Of a stretch of DNA of 64,000 bases, positions 600 to 36,336 are shown piece after piece (positions within the stretch are counted from its first letter, which is position 1; each line of letters opens with the position of its first letter). Source of the stretch: Cyathus striatus (lineage: Eukaryota > Basidiomycota > Agaricomycetes > Agaricales > Nidulariaceae); the NCBI GenBank assembly GCA_025738555.1, contig JAOVFP010000016.1, positions 248,001 to 312,000 on the forward strand, given 5' to 3'. Position numbers and translations under genes: made by a program. The notes beneath the pieces are model-generated. The model searched no databases, was not told the origin of the DNA, and saw only the letters and a program-made list of their open reading frames with translations.

Positions 600-1331
600 A
601 GAAGGGCTGCCTTTTGTTATCTCCGTCGTCCCCCCTCGTCGTTGTGTTCCCCGGTGGTCATCGAACATCTTACCCCCCCTCTTCGTCATCTTCCTCCTGT
701 TCCCCTGGTTCCCATCTCGCCCCCTCGCCATCTTCTCGGCCCCTTCGCACTTCTCCCTTGTCGTTGTGTTCGCTGCAGTTCAGTGGCCTCATGGCTAAAC
801 CATTAAAGCTCGTTAGATGATGTCGTTTGGTGCTGTATACTCACAAACCTTAACCACCTCGAGTCATTGTATATTGGTCTTGGTGACCTTCCTGATGTGG
901 TCATTCTACTCTTTATTATTTACCCTTTCAGCCAATCAGACTTCGCTTTATGGGGTAGTATTGGTATCGTTAATATTGTGAGACGACGATATATGAGAAA
1001 AAGTATCATAGGTACACTATGTAATATATACATAGCCAAAGTAGTTTGAACAACTTTGAAGATAATAAAAAGACGGATGATACGAATTAAAGCGTCTCTG
1101 AGCACGACATGGTGTCAATGAAGCAAGAAGGAATAATGGAACAAGATTTCAATTCATGAGAATGGTTGTGTAGACAAGTAATTGAGGACTGGAGATAATG
1201 AGGATTGGAGGGAATCAATGATGTACTTAGGGTGTCGTTTAACCTTTGTACTTTGCTTGTCCCCAAATTTCCATTAGCGCACATCCAGAGTATCGAAGAC
1301 ACTCTCGTCACTTACAGTAAAGACCCAAAGT
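600..1331. other. Gene-free DNA downstream of the VWA gene
   Basis: Pyrimidine-rich tracts (CCCCCCTC, TCGTC) at 610-760 are followed by AT-rich sequence. Several short open frames exist on both strands, but none is conserved as coding in the duplicate at 17,910-18,860. I see no gene here. Confidence 0.5.
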
Positions 1332-3497
1332 CTATGTACCCTTCGCCCTGACGTTTGGATGAACTCCTCCTAGCATAAGCTGCCCTAGCTTATCTGGGGA
1401 CAGCGATCCAAGATCGGCAGAGGAAATGGCATCTACCATACCCTAAGATTGTCGTCGTTAGTGCTAAGGTCAGGCAACTAGCAAGAATGGTAACCTACAT
1501 TGGTCTTTACCTGCGTCAACAGCTTTAGAGCCTGCGTGGCCCCCAGGTCCCCTCCTACTTGAACAAACTGAACCGCCATTGAGTTAGGGTGATGACAACA
1601 CGCTGCCAAGCGATTCGAAACCGACAAAAGGACACCAGATAATCCATAATTATATCCATCGGCTGTGATGCAGTCAGTCAAAAATCATAAAATATAAAGT
1701 AGAAAACGTGCTCGGAACACCGTCCGTAATAACAACAAGGATGAGCGGTTTAATCCTAGAGTACTCTGGAGTATGCTTCGATTTCTCTAGTTTGTCAATA
1801 TGAGAGTTTAATATCTCGGAACATCTCTGTCCGGTTGGGGTTCCACCTGCGTATCATAATAAGTGACTAGAACATATAGATATATAAACATAACAAACCG
1901 TTGGGGTGTACCATATCAACGAGTTGTCGTATTTTGTTTTTATCCTGTGCATAAACGTGGCACATGAGACGGCGGTACTAAATCAGTAATCGGCAAAAAA
2001 CTTACAGCTATACCAATTAAATCCTTGAATTGAAAGAGACGATTCGAATTAAGAAATCTCAAACTTATCCCTCCTCTATCCCATCCGTTGTCAAGGATCC
2101 AGTTTGCGAGTTGATTTACTGAATCTCTGGCCTCGGACCATGAGGATCCTATCATCTTTACAAAATTGAGATACCCCCAACTTAGTATAGAGCTCGTGAC
2201 TTACAGATCCCGAGTCATCTATGAGAAAGATGAAATCGTAAACCCTAATAGATGTATAAATTCATTAGTAGAAATATCAATAGTAGAAGCCGAAGACAGT
2301 ACTGCAGAATCTTCTCGATCTTTGCAGGTCGCGGCAGCCCGAGCACAGGGTTAAAATTCTGAATTGTCCTCAGAGGTGGAGGTGGAGGGGTAATATTTCT
2401 TTCTGGAGGTAAGAGAACAGCAGGAGTGGCTGCAAATCTGGTAGTCTTTGACACGTCACTATGTGGTGTCCACGTGTCCTGAGGAGGGGCTGGAGCTGCC
2501 TGTGGAGCAACGGAGATGGGAGACTGGAATCCTTCGTCACCTACATATATAGATGCCACTGATTCGCCTGAGACAGAATCGTGTTCCGAGGGTTCAGGCA
2601 GAAGGGGGGTGGACTTCTTTTTAGGAATAGCAGAACCGCCTTTGTTAGAGATTGGAACACCATGTGTCGAATCTACTCCACGTGCATCATTAGCGCCGGG
2701 CACGAAGGCCGGAGAAGCGGTAACAGCAGCGTCCTTGTATTCTTTAGATGCCCTCCCTAGGTCGTGTTTGTGGATAGAAGAGACGCGACTGCTCGTCTGC
2801 AGCTTGGAGCGGGAATTGGATGCACGAATATGCGAATGATTGTTGTTCTCAACAAACCACCGAAGCAGGAACCAGACACATACGAAAATGAGTAAAATGC
2901 CAAGTCCTCTTATGAAAGCATCGACGAGGATGGATTGGACGCCGCTGAATTCACAGGTCGGGTTAAAGGTATTGCCATAGCTATCAAAGCAGTCATTGAA
3001 GCTAAGTAATAAAAGTATTGCGAGAAGGAGACCGGACTCACAGCTGCGCATTCTCCAAAGCGGGAATATCCCGCTCGCCAGAAAACGAGACACGTACGCT
3101 GCGGTCATTACTGAATCGTTCAATCTCATTGCATGTGTCAGCTGTCCCCCCTTGTGATGTATCCAGACATTATAGAAGAATAAACCAATAACGACGAGAA
3201 GTACTTACTAGTGAATCCCGCAGATGGCGACACGAAATCAAATCGAGTTCCTGTTCAGCTACATGTTAGCACTGACACCATAAAATAATCAGAGAGTATA
3301 AGCATCGCACCATCTATAACAAAAGAAGCGGCATTGTTTGTTCCAGAAGAGACTGCATATGACATCTCGAAGGTCCTTGGTATTTTCCCGGTCACTGAAA
3401 TGGTGTGTCCTCTTCCATCTCCATGCGAAGATCGAACGGAGGTCCTAGAGCCAGCACAAACAGTTGGTAGGAATACGAAGATGAGAAATGTACACAT
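1332..3497 (-). CDS. Membrane-anchored protein with cytosolic VWA domain, copy 1
   Basis: Splicing short introns by eye gives one protein of about 550 residues. Proposed exons, 5' to 3': 3497-3311, 3250-3209, 3141-3042, 3001-2304, 2244-2205, 2155-2006, 1944-1899, about 1846-1721, about 1665-1499, 1442-1332. Order of parts: secretion signal (MCTFLIFVFLPTVCAG), a short extracellular domain with a few cysteines, one transmembrane helix (GLGILLIFVCVWFLLRWF), a Ser/Pro-rich linker with a run of five prolines, then a VWA domain. The MIDAS motif FLIDDSGSM is formed across the 2205/2155 splice, followed by GGTPTG, LILVVITDG and MAVQFVQVGGD. VWA domains bind metal-dependent protein partners; the role here is unknown. 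The intron after ITDG has lost the donor and acceptor seen in copy 2, so this copy may be damaged or use shifted sites. Confidence 0.72.
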
Positions 3498-5030: not shown

Positions 5031-6104
5031 AATGAACGAAGAACCTCCAGTAGAAAAGGGGGCTATGTGGGCGAATCGAGAACAGAAGTCCGTACGAGAG
5101 ACAAACCTCACCTTTTAGCCTCACTCTCATCCCCCGATGCGGTGTCCAGCACTTCCCACTTCCACCATCTCTGCCTGGATTCCTAGCACGGCCTTAGCAC
5201 GTCCATGAGCGTAGTTTAGCTACACCAGCAATGCGAAGGCGCATGAGAGCGATGTAAAGTTTGAGGTTAGACAAGAGATAGTGTGTTAGTTTCATGAATG
5301 AAGAAAGTAGAGAATGAGAGGGGGAGGATAACCGTAGTCCGGAAGCCGAACCGTCTAAAAAGATATCACGCTCGAGTCATATGACTGTATCACGTGACAA
5401 AGTCGTGATCTCGTTCTCAGGATAGGCAAATCGGCCTTCCGATCTAACCAAGGGGTGAAGAGAGTGTATGGGAAGTGTGCACGTGGGAGCGGCCCGTTTC
5501 TTCTAGATCCTGATAGATGAGTCACAGTGGAGGAAAGAGTGTTTGAACTATGCTGAAACTGGGAGTCATCAGTTTGCCCTCCGGTTGATTGGAAGCAAAA
5601 GAGGACCCAGATGGGTGATGATCGATGAGGCGCGGTTCCTGTTGGTGCTTAAGTAAATTGGGTCTCGGTGCCATGAGGTACTCGTGAGTAAGGAGACAAA
5701 TGGTTGCTGAGAATTTCTGCACCTCTGAACTGCTGGTTTCCTTCCGATATCCCTCTGGCATTCTGTGTATCGTAATTCATGTACATAAATCAAGATGTAA
5801 AGGTGTCACATGCCACTACTTTAATCCACCTGTTCTTGCGATTGATTCAGATATCACACCCGCTTTATGTAATGGCAAAGTCACTTAAAGAGAAGAAATG
5901 TAGGTAGTAATCTATATTATTATAACCACGATTCAAACGCTTGTACAAGTTGATCATTTATATAAGTAATTTTATGAGGAAAAGTCATAGGCTTTGGTGT
6001 TGCAGTTTCTCACAACGCAGATAAAAAATAGGACATATTTATACTACATGGTTAGATGACAAGATGTTTCTTATGTAGTCCATACGTAGTGTCTTGACGA
6101 CTTC

Positions 6105-7302
6105 ATGGTTACCGGCGCTTCGGGTGGAATAGGTCGCTCGATAGCATTGCGTCTCGCTAAGGATGGATATCACATCTCAATTAATGATCTCCCATCCAAT
6201 AATGAAAAGCTAAAAGAAGTAGAGCACGATATCGTAGGTATGGGAAAGAAGTGCTTTATCTCTCTTGAAGATGTCTCGAACGAAGGGGTCGTCAAATCAT
6301 TAGTTCAAAATGCAGCTGATGAACTTGGAGGTGTTGACGTTGTATGTTCTTTCTTGTTACATAATAAGGGGTCATACTTACGGAGTATATCACGCAGATG
6401 GTTGCGAATGCGGGCATATTCAGTGGAAAGAACTCCATCTTGGATAGTAAACACAGCTTCTCCATCTCTTATCAACACGATCTAACCGCAAGATTAATTG
6501 CAGTGACTGTTGACGAAATGGATAGAACATACTCTGTCAACATCCGCGGGGTTTTCTTGTGTTACAAATATGCTGCCAACCAAATGATCAAGCAAGGAAG
6601 AGGTGGAAGGATTATCGGTGCCTCTTCTTTAGCCGGAAAGCAAGGTAATCCAATCGATTCATGGTATTATCCTCTTATTATTAATGCAATATTTCAGGAT
6701 ACCCATTTGTTAGTCCTTATGTCACATCAAAGTTTGCAGTTAGGGGTCTGACGCAAAGTGCCGGTAGGACATATTTCGCAATGTGCAGCAATCACCCCAT
6801 TAATATCGTCACACTTGGGCAGCTTCAGAACTAGGTAAATACGGAATAACAGTCAACGCATATGCTCCAGGTAACTATCAGGCCAATCTTCCTTGAAAGA
6901 ACTTAAGATTGACTTGCATGTCCATCATAAGGATTCGTAGAAACCGCTATGAGTAAGTAGTCTCATAATATGACCTAAATTTACACGTTTATAATGCGGT
7001 TTTTCAGTGAAACAGTTCCGAGATCCAAGCCCCGGAAATTCCCAATTTTCCACAGTCAATCTGGTAGGAAGAATAGGCGATGTCAAGGATATAGCAAGTC
7101 TTGTGTCGTTTTTGGCCTCTTCAGGCTCCAGCTTCATCACAGGTACATTTCAATCAGTACATGTTCTAAGAGAAGCATTAATAACACTACAATTTCACTA
7201 CCAGGTCAAAGCGTGAGTATTACTTTTTGTTCATATTTTGCAACTGTTAACTTACACCTACCTGTCAAGATTTTCATTAACGGCGGTGTTTTTTTCGATT
7301 GA
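6105..7302 (+). CDS. SDR1: short-chain dehydrogenase/reductase lacking its N-terminal extension
   Basis: Classical SDR fold enzyme of the acetoin/diacetyl reductase type, expected to use NAD(P)H to interconvert a ketone and an alcohol. Visible motifs: VTGASGGIG (TGxxxGxG cofactor loop) directly after the first Met, NDLPSN after beta-2, DV, VANAGI, the catalytic Ser region GASSLAGKQG, YVTSK (YxxxK) across the exon at about 6,700, GITVNAYAPG, and the C-terminal QSV/INGGVFFD. It has about eight exons with short introns. Relative to SDR2, roughly 370 bp holding the presequence is deleted, and the deletion joint itself makes ATG-GTT-ACC. The product would start at the cofactor loop, so it may lack the first beta strand and be weak or inactive. 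One change, GDVS to EDVS, is also visible. Confidence 0.75.
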
Positions 7303-7911: not shown

Positions 7912-9357
7912 CAGGCTCCTAAAACCAGCACGCTCGTATCTCGCTACAACCTCCTTAGGTAAACAAAGTCAAATATTTGCTTAAGGCAAATAAACCTAAG
8001 GGAGGTTCTGCTCGATAGAGCGGCTGGCACAAGTCATCACCGAAATTTCCCCACGGACCCTTGCCATCAACAGGGAAATCGACGGCGGAGTACGCCGCGT
8101 TCCCACCTCATACTTACCCACTCGCGCTCATGAGCGCAATGATCTACAGTTATCTCAGTCTGAGCCTCATACTCTCCATGTACTTAAGTATTCTAAAACC
8201 TAATAATATGTTTTTGATCTTTCTTGGGTTATACTTGTTAAACGTCGTTAATAGCTGGATTCAAGTGGAGTAATAGAATAAACTGGATTTTTGAAAGTTA
8301 TTGGCCTATAAATTTAAAGTAAATACATATGAATTGGAATGAATAATTAAAAATAAAGCATCCTGTGGGTGTGTACTTCACAAACAATTATATATATATA
8401 AAACTGAATGCTGACTGCTGGTTGTAATGGAATGACATGCCTATAGAATAATTATGCATTAATGAATGTACATAAATAGTATATCTAAGTGGCATAAGTC
8501 CAGCTCACCTCAGCTCTCGTAAGTTGAGTGACAACTGAGGACGGTGAATGACTTTTTAATCTACTTTATAAAAGAATATGTAGATCGAAAATTTAATCAC
8601 TAAGCCACTGTACCAGATCAATTGGCGAGGAGAGTGCAGCATCCTGCCTAAATGGTATGGCGCATCAATAACGCACATACTTATTGCATAGACATCGCTT
8701 GCGCTCCAACAGGTTGCCTGCCAAAGGCTCATGCTACAGAGTCCATACTGTATATTCTAAAGTTACTTTCATCAATCTTGTAAATCTATGAAGAAAGACT
8801 TATAGTATAATCAACCACACTGATACAGATGTTGCAATAGGAATTATTTTAATATCTAGCAAGATACAATGATGAATACACCAATGGATTCTTCAGAGCA
8901 TCATGATGTGTCCAGTATATGTAACAACATTTAACAGAGTGATTGCTGATACTTACAAAATGAAAGGCATTCCATATTGTACTTAAGAGCCATGTGAGCC
9001 CGATACTTATCTTAAATGGTAAGTGTACATGCCAGTGCAGCTCAAGAAAGATAAAAAATAAATTATTGAGTTTTAGAATACTTAAGTACATGGAGAGTAT
9101 GAGGCTCAGACTGAGATAACTGTAGATCATTGCGCTCATGAGCACGAGTGGGTAAGTATGAGGTGGGAATGCGGCGTACTCCGCCGTCGATTTCCCTGTT
9201 GATGGCAAGGGTCCGCGGGGAAATTTCGGTGACGACTTGTGCCAGCCGCTCTATCAAGCAGAACCTCCCTTAGGTTTATTTGCCTTAAGCAAATATTTGA
9301 CTTTGTTTACCTAAGGGGGTTGTAGCGAGATACAAGCGTGCTGGTTTTAGGAGCCTG
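7912..9357. mobile_element. hAT-like foldback MITE, 1,446 bp
   Basis: The termini are CAGGCTCC and GGAGCCTG, the outermost bases of inverted arms of about 310 bp (7,912-8,225 and 9,048-9,357) that match almost base for base. The flanks are CCGGTAACT (7,903-7,911) and CTGGTAACT (9,358-9,366), an 8-9 bp target duplication with one mismatch. An unfilled version of the site, ACCGGTAACTCG, is present at 29,233-29,245. There is no transposase ORF, so it is non-autonomous. Assignment to hAT rests on CAG-type ends and duplication length only. Confidence 0.8.
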
Positions 9358-9358
9358 C

Positions 9359-9560
9359 TGGTAACTCGAAAAGTTGACGGCCTCTATTATTATTACTGTT
9401 TGTTCATATTTAGAACTGTTAACTTACCACCGGTAACTCGAAAAGTTTATGGCCTTTATTATTATTACTATTTGTTCATATTTAGAACTGTTAACTTACC
9501 CCTCCATACCCATCAAGATCTCCATTAACAGCGGTACTTTTTTTGATTCAGATATTGATT
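9359..9560 (+). pseudogene. SDR ghost: 3' intron and last exon only
   Basis: TCTCCATTAACAGCGGTAC followed by TTTTTTTGATTC corresponds to the final SDR exon (SINGGxFFD), and the preceding TTTGTTCATATTTAGAACTG matches the last SDR intron. About 71 bp is duplicated in tandem (9,359-9,430 and 9,431-9,500). No upstream SDR exons remain. Confidence 0.6.
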
Positions 9561-9848
9561 TTCTATCGAGCTCAAGACACCTTAAGGTTGAGAACTGGAA
9601 TAGTGAATTGTTCAATTCGATATAACTATGTTCTCTCTATATCTTTCAAGAGATAAATTTTGGAATGTCAGTCTATGAACATTATAAGCTCTGGCATATA
9701 TAGTCACACCGTCAGACAGATGTTGTAGATTCTTATATGATGCTCTAGCATTTATGAACTACATATAGAGTTGGACCTAAGTATATCACAGAGATAACAT
9801 AAAACCTCTTTCTTCCAAAGACTCCATCTTTTCCCCCCACTACAGCAA
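9561..9848 (+). promoter_or_regulatory. SDR3 promoter, conserved between SDR copies
   Basis: The sequence is shared with the DNA upstream of SDR4 (26,800-27,100) and SDR5 (29,375-29,664). Shared elements include TATATAGTTACACCGTCAGA, ATTCTTATATGATGCTCTAG and CTACATATAGAGTTGGACCT about 85 bp before the ATG; the last carries the likely TATA element. Confidence 0.5.
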
Positions 9849-10119
9849 TGTCAATACTTCCATCATTGCGTTTCACCAAAGCCATTCCCTCCCCCCTCCA
9901 CCATATTCATTACAACGTAGTCACAGCCCTTCGCAAAACCTCCTCTTCATTTTCCACATCGAGTAGTGTCAGCAAATATTTTCATATTAACTCCTGGCTA
10001 TATGATCATGCGTTCTTATAAGCATGGAGTTTTATGATCACCTCTAAATTATATAGTGTTCTATACTATTAGTGATTGTAATAGTGATCATAAATGATCA
10101 TTTAGGGATATAGGTGGCG

Positions 10120-10550
10120 TATTGGGGTGAATACTAGTACTGATGGGTTTCTATGGACTATTACTTGTTCTAATGGATTTGTAAATGATCATAAGTGATC
10201 ATTAGGTGGTGCAGGTGGCGTAATAGGATATTAGTGGTACTAATAGATTTGTAAGTGATCATAAGTGATCATTAGGTGATCTAGGTGGTGTAATGGGTTA
10301 TTAGTGATACTAATAGATTTGTAAGTGATCATATGTGATCATTAGGTGATCTAGGTGGCATAATGAATTACTAGTGGTACTAATGGATTCGTAAGTGATC
10401 ATAAGTGATCATTAGGTGATCTAGGTGGTGTAATGGGTTAATAGTGATACTAATAGATTCATAAGTGATCATATGTGATCATTAGGTGATCTAGATGGTG
10501 TAATGGATTATTAGTGGTACTAATGGATTCATAAGTGATCATAAGTGATC
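10120..10550. repeat. Subterminal tandem array, ~70-bp units, left arm
   Basis: Six or so units of about 70 bp, each with two TGATCA palindromes (AAGTGATCATAAGTGATCAT) followed by AGGTGATCTAGGTGG and TTAGTGGTACTAATGGATT. The units differ at a few positions. Confidence 0.85.
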
Positions 10551-11290
10551 ATATATGTCACATGCATTGTGTATGTCACAGATGTCACGTTTGTTATGGA
10601 TGTCACACGCGTCACACGTGTCACAGATGTCACATATATCGCATTTGTCACACTTTTACAGATGTCACATGTGTCACACTTTCACAGATGTTACAAATGT
10701 CACACCTTCGCATATGTCACACTTTCGCATATGTCACGCATTCACAAATGTCACACCTTCGCATATGTCACACTTTCACATATGTCACATGTGTCACACT
10801 TTCGCATATGTTACGCATTCACATGTGTCACACTTTCACATATATCACAAATGTTACACTTTCGCATATGTCACACTTTCGCATATGTCACACTGTCACA
10901 TACGTCACATATGTCACGCTTTCGCATATGTCACGCATTCACATGTGTCACACTTTCACATATGTCACAAATGTCACACTTTCGCATATGTTACACTTCT
11001 GCATACATCATACTTTCGCATATGTCACACTTCTGCATATGTTACAAATGTCACACTTTCAGAGATGTCACAGGTATCACACATGTTTGCATATGTCACA
11101 CACTTTCGCATATGTCACACTTTCATATATGTCACACTTCCACATATGTTACAAATGTCACACTTTTACATATGTTGCATATATATCACACTTGTCACAC
11201 TATATAACACTATGTCATACTTTTACATATGCTACACTTGTCACATTTTCACACTCTTACATATGTCACCCCTATCACATTTACTTGTAT
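10551..11290. repeat. Subterminal tandem array, ~17-bp units, left arm
   Basis: Dozens of units close to TTTCGCATATGTCACAC, with variants such as GCATTCACATGTGTCAC. Because the unit is not a multiple of three and contains no stop codon, all three frames stay open for over 200 codons. I treat these frames as non-coding. Confidence 0.88.
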
Positions 11291-12252
11291 GACACTCCTA
11301 TTATATAGTTACATATGTCACATTTCCAAATTCATGTTACACCACACCTGTTACAACCATTATACTTATCACATGTCATACATCTCTTATATGTCAATAT
11401 TACACCTGTTAGATTCTTACATCTGTCATACTTTGTTCACTACCAGGCTTGTCACTGACAGGAGTGCTCCAATATTATACACCCCCATAACTCAGTCAAG
11501 GCTGTCATTCTTGCCAATCAAACACATACATGTCACATATCCCAACACATCACATTTATTCACATTTTATTCACAGGTCACACATCTCTCATTTGTAATA
11601 CTGTACAATTCTGTAACAATGAAGATTGAACAGTAGTGAGTACTGCTAAGAAGGACACAAGAAATCATATACCCCAATGATCAGTCAAGAAATAAATATC
11701 TGATTGGCTAATGGAAAGTGTGACAAAAATATAAGTGATGTGATAATAGAAGCAATAACTGAATGGAAGATATAGATAAGGCAACATAACCAGACCAGGT
11801 TACTGAACATGCTTAAGGTTGGTTAGACAAAATTAGAATCTAAGTACAGTTATATCTACTATAGAATCTGATAGACTAATTAAAACATAATATTGTGATT
11901 GCCAGAAAGTAGTATTGATATAATGTGATTTTTGCCTAGTGCTATGAATGTTGAATTCAACCAAACACAGGTAAATAGTTGAAGAAATATGATTCTCTTA
12001 AAGTGGTCTAGTGTCTTTGTCATATAACTTGTAATGCACATAAATCACTAGATGAGCACTTTTCATGTAACCTTTTCATGTGACATGTATGATATGTGTT
12101 GCAGCAGATGGTTGCAATGCAATGTTGAGAGAATGATAAGCTGGTAGAGGCAAAAAGCTGTCAAGAGTTTCAAGAATGGTAGGAGAGTCTGTGACTGTGG
12201 TGTAATTTTACTTTTTGACAGGGAGAGTACCTTGACAAATCAAGATGATACT

Positions 12253-12406
12253 TGGTAAAATTCAAAATTGGTTAATGTCACACAGAGTCAAATGTAACCA
12301 CATGTTAGGTGTCACTATTATTCAACCATGTTTCACTTTTAGTCCTTATATTTGACTTACATTTGACTCTGTGTGAGATATATCCAATTTTGCTTTTTAC
12401 CAAGGG
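12253..12406. repeat. Imperfect inverted repeat in the transposon core
   Basis: TTGGTAAAATTCAAAATTGG at 12,253 followed by CACACAGAGTCAAATGTAA is mirrored by TTACATTTGACTCTGTGTG near 12,356 and CCAATTTTGC...TTACCAA to 12,403. It forms a stem of about 45 bp with a loop of about 55 bp, inside the element. Confidence 0.6.
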
Positions 12407-12559
12407 TGTCATGAGAATGAAGTGTGATATGTGTGACAGATGTGAGAATGTAACAGGTGTAATATTGACACATAAGGGGTGTATGACATGTGATGAGTAT
12501 GACAGTTGTAATAGATATGGTGTGACATATGTGACTACATGACAGGAGTGTCATAAAAA

Positions 12560-13280
12560 GCAAATATGACAAGTGTAACAAGTGCAATATATGTGACATA
12601 TGGGAAAGTGTGACATATGCGAACATGTGTGACATATGAGACAGTGTGTGACATATGCGAACGTGTGACACCTGTGATATTTGTGAAAGTGTAACATTTG
12701 TGACATTTGTGACATATGCGGAAGTGTGACATATGTGAAAGTGTGACATTTGTGACATTTGTGACATTTGTGAATGCGTGACATATGCGAAGGTGTGACA
12801 TTTGTGACATCTGTGAAAGTGTGACACATGTGACATCCATAACAAATGTAACATCTGTAAAAGTGTGACAAATGCGATATATGTGACATATGTGACACCT
12901 GTGACGCGTGACATATGCGAAAGTGTAACATTTGTGACATATGTGAAAGTGTGACACATGTGAATGCGTAACATATGCGAAAGTGTGACATATGCGAAGG
13001 TGTGACATTTGTGACATTTGTGACATTTGTGAATGCGTGACATATGCGAAAGTGTAACATTTATAATATATGTGAAAGTGTGACACATGTGAATGCGTGA
13101 CATATGCGAAAGTGTGACATATGCGAAGGTGTGACATTTGTAACATCTGTGAAAGTGTGACACATGTGACATCTGTAAAAGTGTGACAAATGCGATATAT
13201 GTGACATCTGTGACACGTGTGACGCGTGTGACATCCATAACAAACGTGACATCTGTGACATACACAATGCATGTGACATA
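12560..13280. repeat. Subterminal tandem array, ~17-bp units, right arm
   Basis: The mirror of the left array, read as GTGTGACATATGCGAAA units on the plus strand. The order of variant units is similar but not identical to the left arm, so the arms have drifted or exchanged units. Long open frames on the minus strand are by-products of the repeat. Confidence 0.85.
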
Positions 13281-13720
13281 TATGATCACTTATGATCACT
13301 TATGAATCCATTAGTACCACTAATAATCCATTACACCATCTAGATCACCTAATGATCACATATGATCACTTATGAATCTATTAGTATCACTATTAACCCA
13401 TTACACCACCTAGATCACCTAATGATCACTTATGATCACTTACGAATCCATTAGTACCACTAGTAATTCATTATGCCACCTAGATCACCTAATGATCACA
13501 TATGATCACTTACAAATCTATTAGTATCACTAATAACCCATTACACCACCTAGATCACCTAATGATCACTTATGATCACTTACAAATCTATTAGTACCAC
13601 TAATATCCTATTACGCCACCTGCACCACCTAATGATCACTTATGATCATTTACAAATCCATTAGAACAAGTAATAGTCCATAGAAACCCATCAGTACTAG
13701 TATTCACCCCAATACGCCAC
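13281..13720. repeat. Subterminal tandem array, ~70-bp units, right arm
   Basis: The mirror of 10,120-10,550, with paired TGATCA palindromes and the same unit length. Confidence 0.85.
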
Positions 13721-14884
13721 CTATATCCCTAAATGATCATTTATGATCACTATTACAATCACTAATAGTATAGAACACTATATAATTTAGAGGTGATCAT
13801 AAAACTCCATGCTTATAAGAACGCATGATCATATAGCCAGGAGTTAATATGAAAATAGTTTGCTAACACTTATGCCACATCCGCTTTGAACAGTAGAGTC
13901 GCAGTAGTCACAGGCGCCTCACGTGGAATTGGACACGCAATAGCCTTACGTCTCACTCAAGATGGATTCAATATCCATATTACCACTATCAACAGCGAAA
14001 GGCTGAAAGACGTAAAACGTAGTATTGAAGATCTTGGGAAGAAATGCTTCATCTATGTTGGAGATGTATCAAAAGAGGAAGATGTTAAAGCGTTAATTGA
14101 AAGTGCAGTAGACGAGCTTGGGAGCATTGACATTGTATGTTATTTCATTTCTACCTAGTAGCACATTGTCATATTTATTAAGCGTGATATATACAGATGG
14201 TTGTGAATGCAGAAATATGTTGGCTCGCATCTATCACGGACAATGAATTACCTTTTTAAATTCCGTTACACATACAGTATCTTATCTCACCTCAATATAC
14301 ACTACAGTGCCAGTTGATGAAATGGACAGACACTACGCAGTCAACACCTGCGGAACATTTCTGAGTTACAAATACGCTGCTCAACAAATGATAAAACAAG
14401 GGAGAGGAGGGAGAATTATTGGTGCCTCTTCTATAGCTGGGAAACAAGGTAATCTAGTTGATTTATCGATTGAAGTTAGACGATTACTATCGCAATGTAT
14501 CAAGGATATCCATATATTAGTGGCTATGTTGCATCCAAATTCGCAATTAGGGGTCTAACCCAAAGCGCTGGTAGAACATATTCCGGAATGAAAAGCCAAA
14601 TATCCTACTGATATACTTGAATAGACACGGAGCTCGGCAAATATGGGATCACAGTCAATGCATATGCCCCAGGTACCCCATGATCTTCTCTTAATCTTCC
14701 AAGTCCCCAATGTTAATACATTTCTATACTATGTAGGCGCAGTAGAAACTGATATGAGTAAGTAACTCAGCTTCAGCTTTACAGTCGTAATACCTAATGC
14801 CACATGTTTAGCAAAAACTCTTCGAGACATAACGGGAGATCAAACACCCGATTACACTGCTAATCCAGTAGGAAGAATGGGAAA

Positions 14885-35185: not shown

Positions 35186-35389
35186 TAAAAATTTATTCAC
35201 TCCTTTTAGGTATATTTCGTTCTCTTTCTCTTATTTAAACTGTGTATCTAGGTCTATCGTACTTTAGTGAAATTCACCCCTCGTTTCTACCTCTCACTCA
35301 TCTGGAAAAACCCCATCAGCTAAATTAGTAATATTAGTAAATCTAAGGTGTACCCATGTCCAAATGTTACTAATTTGAGGTAATTCAAC

Positions 35390-35580
35390 TTAATTGTACT
35401 TATATTGCCTATTGTGAGGCATGATAAGTATTCATAAGTTTGGTACAATAGCAAAGCATACTTATTTGTGCTTATATTTCCTATTGTGAGTCATGATAAG
35501 GGTTCATAAGTTTGGTACAATGGCAAATAAAATTTACTTGTACTTATATCACCTACTGTAAGAATGATAAGTTTTATAAG
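35390..35580. repeat. Tandem repeat, ~75-bp units
   Basis: Two and a half units of TTGTACTTATATTGCCTATT, then GTGAGGCATGATAAGTATTC and ATAAGTTTGGTACAATAGC. The last unit is degenerate. Confidence 0.7.
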
Positions 35581-35733: not shown

Positions 35734-36336
35734 CAGTGCTGATCAAAAGTATTGTACACACAAAATCCAAACAAACAAGATTGCGAAAGACATAACTCCT
35801 CTCTAAGTTGATCAAATCTCTTCATGTAAAATGTAGATATGTAATATACGGCCTGCTCTACTATAATATGATTTTTGCAAATTTTTATACGCACAGAATA
35901 ATGCTACAAGAAGTGACGAAAAAGGGTGAGGTTTTGACTGTATTGCGAGCTTTACCACATTATCCGGGATCGACGAAATTACGTTTATTTTAGGTATGTT
36001 ATACTACTGCTTAAGATCTTCAAAACGCGTCATTAAACATAAAATTATGAGCTGTGGGTCATTTGTAATTGTCGAGGCGTTCTGGCGACTTTCGCTAAAA
36101 ATAGCCAAATGATGCGAAAAATAGCAAAAGTCGCCGGAACGCCTCGACAATAACAAATGACCCACAACTCATAATTTTGTGTTTAATGACGCGTTTTGAA
36201 GCTCTTAAGCAGTAGTATAACATACCTAAAATACACATAATTTCGTCGATCCTGGATGGCACTGTATATATATTCCATTCAATGGCTAAAGGCAATAGAT
36301 TAAGTACATGTACAATACTTTCTAGTAATTAAACTG
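35734..36336. mobile_element. Tc1/mariner-like MITE with palindromic core
   Basis: Left end CAGTGCTGATCAAAAGTATT and right end (inverted) CAGTTTAATTACTAGAAAGT then ATTGTACA, flanked on both sides by TA (35,732-35,733 and 36,337-36,338), the mariner-family target. The right half (about 35,965-36,255) folds into a hairpin with arms of about 125 bp. Left-end sequence recurs at 47,518. No transposase. Confidence 0.72.
35965..36255. repeat. Long hairpin (foldback) within the mariner-like MITE
   Basis: Arms read GGGATCGACGAAATTACG to GTCGAGGCGTTCTGGCGACT and return in mirror as AGTCGCCGGAACGCCTCGAC to TAATTTCGTCGATCCTGG, with a loop of about 30 bp. Few mismatches. Confidence 0.9.

What the first reader, a model, noticed from the sequence alone, without database searches (positions are those of the whole stretch)
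9961..13874. Palindromic transposon with two nested layers of subterminal arrays
The element is almost all inverted arms. Each arm has a 70-bp array rich in paired TGATCA and then a 17-bp array of TTTCGCATATGTCACAC-like units, with a coreless centre. Such dense, ordered, symmetric arrays suggest binding platforms for a transposase supplied in trans. I do not recognise a described family with this layout.
Basis: partly seen in the sequence, partly recalled or inferred. Interest (0 to 1): 0.8.

Follow-up and report, generated by a model that had tools for sequence, protein, structure and literature searches.

The report
Gene-less palindromic fungal KDZ transposon
A 3.9-kb jumping DNA element without genes of its own, built almost entirely of two mirror-image arms full of repeated short motifs, has landed in a gene of what is probably a mushroom-forming fungus and appears to be moved by the KDZ-type transposase of larger relatives elsewhere in the same genome.

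Summary
It interrupts a short-chain-dehydrogenase gene; the empty site restores an open frame. The family has 61 recognisable ends in the genome. Of 25 end pairs, 17 have exact 7-bp duplications, 2 have one mismatch, 6 do not match. Two long copies (16.4 and 18.0 kb) with these ends carry a KDZ transposase gene with CxC2 and KDZ domains, so the short elements are most likely non-autonomous KDZ transposons moved in trans. Relatives with diverged arms share the two layers (paired TGATCA outside, GTCAC motif inside). The tips are unlike, one GAG and one CAT type, in 24 of 24 pairs with both tips recognised. The centre is not coreless: a conserved non-coding ~0.7-kb core is flipped in 4 of 12 copies. 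Long repetitive arms are known from Foldback and Galileo; six literature searches listed nothing like it for KDZ. Binding of the arrays by transposase is inferred, supported by cross-family conservation of TGATCA pairs. New variant of a known kind.

The parts
9961..13874 (.). whole non-autonomous element, 3,914 bp
   Evidence: ends fixed by conserved tips in other copies and by the 7-bp duplication
9954..9960 (+). left copy of the target-site duplication CCACATC
13875..13881 (+). right copy of the target-site duplication CCACATC
9961..9977 (+). GAG-type tip (GAGTAGTGTCAGCAAAT)
   Evidence: wider pattern 204 sites in the genome, 0 in the reversed-pattern control
13857..13874 (-). CAT-type tip (read inwards CATAAGTGTTAGCAAACT)
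   Evidence: wider pattern 371 sites, 0 in the control
10003..10552 (+). left outer layer: TGATCA sites from base 43 inwards, 70-bp tandem array 10153-10552 with TGATCA pairs 10 bp apart
13282..13831 (-). right outer layer: 70-bp array 13282-13681 and outlying TGATCA sites
10557..11431 (+). left inner layer: array of mostly 9- and 17-bp units around TGTCACA (tandem array called at 10611-11269)
12431..13277 (-). right inner layer, inverted (tandem array called at 12589-13262)
11640..12350 (.). conserved core, longest stop-to-stop frame 58 aa
9848..9960 (+). 5' part of the interrupted first coding exon of a short-chain dehydrogenase (SDR) gene, left of the insertion
   Evidence: open frame restored when the element and one duplication copy are left out
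13882..14134 (+). remainder of that exon to the right of the insertion; a further exon lies in 14247-14558
   Evidence: Pfam adh_short E 9.9e-19

Best explanation
A non-autonomous KDZ (Kyakuja-Dileera-Zisupton) DNA transposon with Foldback-like anatomy. Transposase made by rare 16-18-kb two-gene relatives recognises the subterminal arms, brings one GAG tip and one CAT tip together, cuts the element out and inserts it with a 7-bp staggered cut. Shown: shared ends, 7-bp duplications, a KDZ gene in the two long copies, unlike tips in each copy, conserved array motifs, an empty site with an open frame. Inferred: that a KDZ transposase does the moving, that paired TGATCA sites (and perhaps the GTCAC array, whose TGTCA word recurs in the tips) are its binding sites, and that recombination between the inverted arms flips the core and keeps arms alike while the tips stay different.
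For: Duplications: 17 of 25 pairs exact 7 bp, 2 with one mismatch; the long C13 copy is exact, the long C7 copy has one mismatch. The long copies align with the window element over about 590 bp at both ends at 85-89% and carry TGATCA arrays at both ends. Pieces of the C7 gene: CxC2 E 2.2e-39, KDZ E 3.4e-33; nearest proteins elsewhere are Agaricomycete CxC2/KDZ proteins at 56-57% identity or less (120 of 332 listed). On C1 to C7:3.25 Mb, exact GAG-tip matches lie within 4 kb 3' of, and facing, 6 of 33 KDZ exons examined (one is the C7 copy itself), with 0 upstream and 0 turned the other way; at 12 kb it is 8 facing, 1 turned the other way, 0 upstream. Tips unlike in 24 of 24 family pairs with both tips recognised and in 29 of 31 convergent pairs under 6 kb on C1-C3; at 12 kb 30 of 37, label-shuffle mean 17.0, maximum 27 of 5000 (includes some pairs). 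First TGATCA at base 43 or 44 in 33 of 34 arms. TGATCA-pair footprints 90% invariant against 50% elsewhere over six arms; without the pair used to find the relatives 88% against 50%, 69 of 20000 random choices as high. Empty site open.
Against: No binding, excision or transposition data. The long C7 copy has almost no GTCAC array (2 and 0 sites within 2.6 kb of its ends) and C13 has it on one side only, with a different 19-bp unit, so the inner layer need not be essential for a KDZ element. Both long copies are broken in the transposase gene: by eye one in-frame stop in C7, two in C13, at other places; no intact source copy was identified here. Six of 25 pairs lack the duplication, two of them ends 27-28 kb apart that may not belong together. 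Within the family the TGATCA sites are only slightly more conserved than the rest of the 70-bp unit, and other frames of the unit are as conserved. The six arms come from few lineages and are not independent. Two of 31 close convergent tip pairs, and 7 of 37 within 12 kb, are of like type.
Confidence: 0.8

Rival explanations
1. Same transposon, but the arrays are not transposase binding platforms: they are slippage or unequal-exchange products, or host-factor sites, carried along by palindromic duplication of one end.
For: The inner array unit changes between families (9, 17, 18, 19 bp), as expected of drifting tandem repeats; C7 nearly lacks the inner array; within-family conservation of TGATCA over the rest of the unit is slight.
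Against: TGATCA pairs stay fixed in position and sequence between families whose arms differ by about 30% with indels; TGTCAC or GTCACA is the first or second commonest 6-mer in 7 of 8 inner arrays compared and third in the other (some stretches were delimited by GTCAC content); order and distance from the tip are nearly constant.
Confidence: 0.25
2. The 3.9-kb palindrome works mainly as a source of hairpin RNA or a cruciform (silencing trigger or rearrangement hot spot), mobility being incidental.
For: Arms 99% complementary over 793 bp; core found in both orientations; no Rfam family matched at gathering threshold, which leaves an unknown RNA possible.
Against: Insertion hallmarks, many similar dispersed copies, and long relatives with a transposase gene show that it spreads as a transposon.
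Confidence: 0.05
3. The short elements are moved by another superfamily that also makes 7-bp duplications (such as a hAT with 7-bp duplications), and the KDZ copies only share end and array sequence.
For: Seven-bp duplications are reported for fungal hAT7 (PMC12730594, passages); long internally repetitive arms for the P-superfamily element Galileo (PMC3688188, abstract and passages).
Against: The two long copies with these tips hold KDZ genes; no hAT or P-type Pfam hit in the 9 pieces scanned from them (2, 7), which is only part of their frames.
Confidence: 0.04

Closest known systems
Kyakuja lineage of KDZ transposons (Agaricomycetes)
   Same: KDZ transposase; 7-bp target duplication; one terminus begins CA (PMC12730594, passages seen)
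   Different: reported there as 5'-CA..TG-3' termini without inverted repeats, for two Laccaria families that carry a TET/JBP gene; here termini are CA..TC with long inverted arms, and no TET/JBP match was found (whose control genomes were also silent)
Cryptococcus KDZ1-KDZ3
   Same: fungal KDZ transposase with a CxC cluster, inverted terminal repeats (PMC12810828, passages seen)
   Different: TIRs of 139-241 bp, duplications of 8 bp (KDZ1) and 4-8 bp (KDZ2, KDZ3), CxC1 cluster; no arrays mentioned in the passages seen
Galileo / Foldback elements
   Same: very long internally repetitive inverted arms; [quoted passage not shown]
   Different: Galileo has a P-superfamily transposase with a THAP domain; this is how ours may work, not a family link
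Zisupton and Dileera lineages of KDZ
   Same: related transposase domain (PF18758)
   Different: 8-bp duplications (PMC12730594, passages) against 7 bp here

Membership tests
KDZ transposons | KDZ transposase domain (PF18758) in full-length relatives with the same ends | tested here: met
   E 3.4e-33 in an exon piece of the C7 copy; last exon 91% identical between C7 and C13
KDZ transposons | associated CxC cysteine cluster | tested here: met
   CxC2 PF18803 E 2.2e-39
KDZ transposons | 7- or 8-bp target duplication (lengths given for Kyakuja, Zisupton and Dileera in PMC12730594) | tested here: met
   17 of 25 pairs exact 7 bp, 2 with one mismatch
Kyakuja | 7-bp duplication | tested here: met
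Kyakuja | 5'-CA..TG-3' termini | tested here: not met
   in gene orientation the ends are CATAAG .. CTACTC (C7) or CCACTC (C13)
Kyakuja | no terminal inverted repeats | tested here: not met
   arms 87% (C7) and 96% (C13) alike in the long copies, 99% in the window element
Kyakuja | transposase groups with Kyakuja in a tree | not tested
   no named reference sequences of the three lineages were obtained
Kyakuja | TET/JBP gene aboard (feature of the published set, not of all) | tested here: inconclusive
   0 matches to PF12851, but the 14 control genomes also gave 0
Zisupton / Dileera | 8-bp duplication | tested here: not met
   7 bp
Galileo / P superfamily | P-type transposase with THAP domain | tested here: not met
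   the long copies hold a KDZ/CxC2 gene; no THAP or P-type Pfam hit in the 9 pieces scanned from them
Galileo / Foldback | long inverted arms made of tandem repeats | tested here: met
hAT7 | hAT transposase | tested here: not met
   KDZ instead; no hAT hit in the 9 pieces scanned

The most novel reading that the evidence does not exclude
This clan of KDZ elements uses a two-part, polarised recognition platform: paired TGATCA sites bind the transposase as helically phased dimers; the inner TGTCAC arrays, which echo the TGTCA of the tips, load a second factor (perhaps the divergent companion gene's product) or more transposase; and synapsis requires one GAG and one CAT tip. The gene-less palindromes would then be platform-only parasites that compete for transposase by carrying more sites.
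Probability: 0.25. Interest if true: 0.65.

Novelty: new variant of a known kind. Interest (0 to 1): 0.5.

Why it matters
KDZ transposons are abundant in mushroom-forming fungi (in Marasmius oreades the repeats are dominated by retrotransposons and by KDZ and Plavaka elements, which its authors call understudied; PMC8290104, abstract and passages). Here one genome offers a whole clan of related families whose ends can be compared: fixed tip asymmetry, phased TGATCA pairs and inner arrays that turn over. That makes it possible to ask directly what a KDZ transposase binds, and whether Foldback-like arms arose in yet another superfamily for the reason proposed for Galileo.

Full report
What is there. 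The window lies at C16:248001-312000 of a 107-Mb genome in 24 contigs. The proteins nearest to its relatives' transposase are from Agaricomycetes, the best two from Cyathus striatus at 56-57% (120 of 332 listed), so the host is most likely a mushroom-forming fungus; no name was given. Its arms 9974-10766 and 13068-13860 are 99% complementary. Each arm has an outer 70-bp array (10153-10552, 13282-13681) and an inner array of mostly 17-bp and 9-bp units (10611-11269, 12589-13262). TGATCA and its 10-bp pairs, and GTCAC, far exceed dinucleotide shuffles. The centre 11640-12350 is conserved in other copies and has no frame above 58 aa.

Insertion. Leaving out the element and one duplication copy gives an open frame, MSILPSLRFTKAIPSPLHHIHYNVVTALRKTSSSFSTSALNSRVAVVTGASRGIG.., the start of a short-chain dehydrogenase (adh_short E 9.9e-19 for the part right of the insertion); with the element the frame closes about 20 codons after the junction. 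The N-terminus looks like a mitochondrial presequence (my reading, no program run). A second SDR-like frame lies at 6090-6485 (adh_short E 2e-12).

Copies. A 35-base end pattern with up to 3 mismatches occurs 61 times (29 forward, 32 reverse; 0 in the reversed-pattern control). Of 25 end pairs, 17 have an exact 7-bp duplication, 2 have one mismatch and 6 do not match; one of the 6 has a tip that was not recognised and two are ends 27-28 kb apart. All 24 pairs with both tips recognised have one GAG-type and one CAT-type tip. The window's two arms are identical over 600 bp inside the tips, and the closest arm of the other 14 elements compared differs by 0.67%, which suggests recent spread. Arms differ more within some copies (up to 11.9%), so homogenisation is incomplete.

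Long copies. C13:1906110-1924089 (17,980 bp, exact duplication) and C7:641958-658352 (16,395 bp, one mismatch) have the same kind of tips. Both carry a multi-exon gene near the GAG end. The last exons are 91% identical. Pieces of the C7 gene match CxC2 (E 2.2e-39) and KDZ (E 3.4e-33). By eye the gene has one in-frame stop in C7 and two in C13, at different places. A second, divergent gene of unknown function (no Pfam match in three pieces) lies 5' of it; of the 40 best KDZ matches in the genome 37 have a relative of it 5' on the opposite strand within 25 kb, and none has one downstream. The outer TGATCA arrays are present at both ends of both long copies (14-15 ten-bp pairs at the GAG end, 7-10 at the CAT end). 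Within 2.6 kb of the ends the GTCAC array is on one side of C13 only (59 against 0 sites) and almost absent in C7 (2 and 0).

The clan. CATAAGTGTYAGCMAA occurs 371 times and GAGNRGTGTCAGCMAAT 204 times, 0 in controls. Convergent neighbouring tips under 6 kb apart on C1-C3 are of unlike type in 29 of 31 cases; at 12 kb 30 of 37, against a label-shuffle mean of 17.0 and maximum of 27 in 5000. On C1 to C7:3.25 Mb, GAG tips lie within 4 kb 3' of 6 of 33 KDZ exons, all six facing the gene, one of them in the C7 copy itself; at 12 kb 8 face the gene and 1 does not. Five loci fetched because of a TGATCA pair (L057-L061) all also have a GTCAC array inside. Two were fetched with both tips: L061 has a 7-bp duplication CTCCCCA at the boundaries set by the tips (longer matches exist at shifted boundaries), L058 has none of 6 bp or more. 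The L058 arm is 70% identical to the window's, yet TGATCA-pair footprints are 90% invariant over six arms against 50% elsewhere. Leaving out the pair that had been used to find these loci: 88% against 50%, 69 of 20000 random choices as high; for the window against L058 alone 88% against 59%, 247 of 20000. The arms are related to one another, so these are not independent observations. The inner arrays differ in unit length and context, but TGTCAC or GTCACA is among the three commonest 6-mers in all 8 arrays compared, from 7 loci; since some stretches were delimited by GTCAC content this is partly by choice, and two of the loci (L058, L061) are 96% alike over 143 bp there.

Mechanism. Best reading: cut-and-paste by a KDZ transposase supplied in trans. 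The outer layer, common to gene-bearing and gene-less copies and at a nearly fixed distance from the tips (first TGATCA at base 43 or 44 in 33 of 34 arms), is the better candidate for the main binding platform. The inner layer is an accessory whose word TGTCA recurs in the tips GTGTCAGC. Of 13 complete short copies 12 have a core match: 8 in the window's orientation relative to the tips and 4 flipped, including copies with cores 99.4-99.7% identical. Recombination between inverted arms would explain both this and the alike arms with unlike tips (inference). Galileo is the precedent for transposase sites inside long repetitive arms (PMC3688188, abstract and passages).

Placement. KDZ: the three features tested are met. 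Kyakuja: duplication length met, published termini and absence of inverted repeats not met, tree not tested; so I file it as a KDZ element with a Kyakuja-like duplication, not as Kyakuja. In the held library no listing described nested arrays in KDZ ends; the supplement of the M. oreades paper, which holds KDZ terminal motifs, was not seen, so an earlier description there is possible.

Noticed in passing
window 7912-8235 and 9034-9357: A second inverted repeat (324 nt, 95%, 798 nt between), followed by two 72-bp tandem copies at 9360-9500; possibly another short transposon.
   Followed up: no
window 35962-36257: Hairpin with 136-nt arms, 93% complementary, 24 nt between; a 72-bp x 2.6 tandem array lies nearby at 35387-35571.
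   Followed up: no
window 6090-6485 and 9848-14558: Two SDR-like genes in tandem; the second is interrupted by the element.
   Followed up: partly
L012 6535-9077, minus strand (C13 copy) and relatives: Divergent companion gene of unknown function, with a relative 5' of 37 of the 40 best KDZ matches; no Pfam match in three pieces scanned.
   Followed up: partly
L009-L011 (C14:2821131-2850341): 28 kb between two tips of this family without a matching duplication, with a tnp2-type transposase gene inside.
   Followed up: partly
C9:3865558-3875604: CAT tip with a companion-gene relative (88%, two in-frame stops) about 10 kb inward: likely a third, broken long copy.
   Followed up: no
core, e.g. 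C22:1501724, C5:6340496, C3:2603322: Ten loci with the core at 88-91% lie where this family's end pattern was not found, so related families share the core.
   Followed up: no
C13 copy, element bases 937-3474: Near its CAT end the copy carries a 19-bp TAGTGTCACACTCAAC-type array followed by a direct second TGATCA array.
   Followed up: partly
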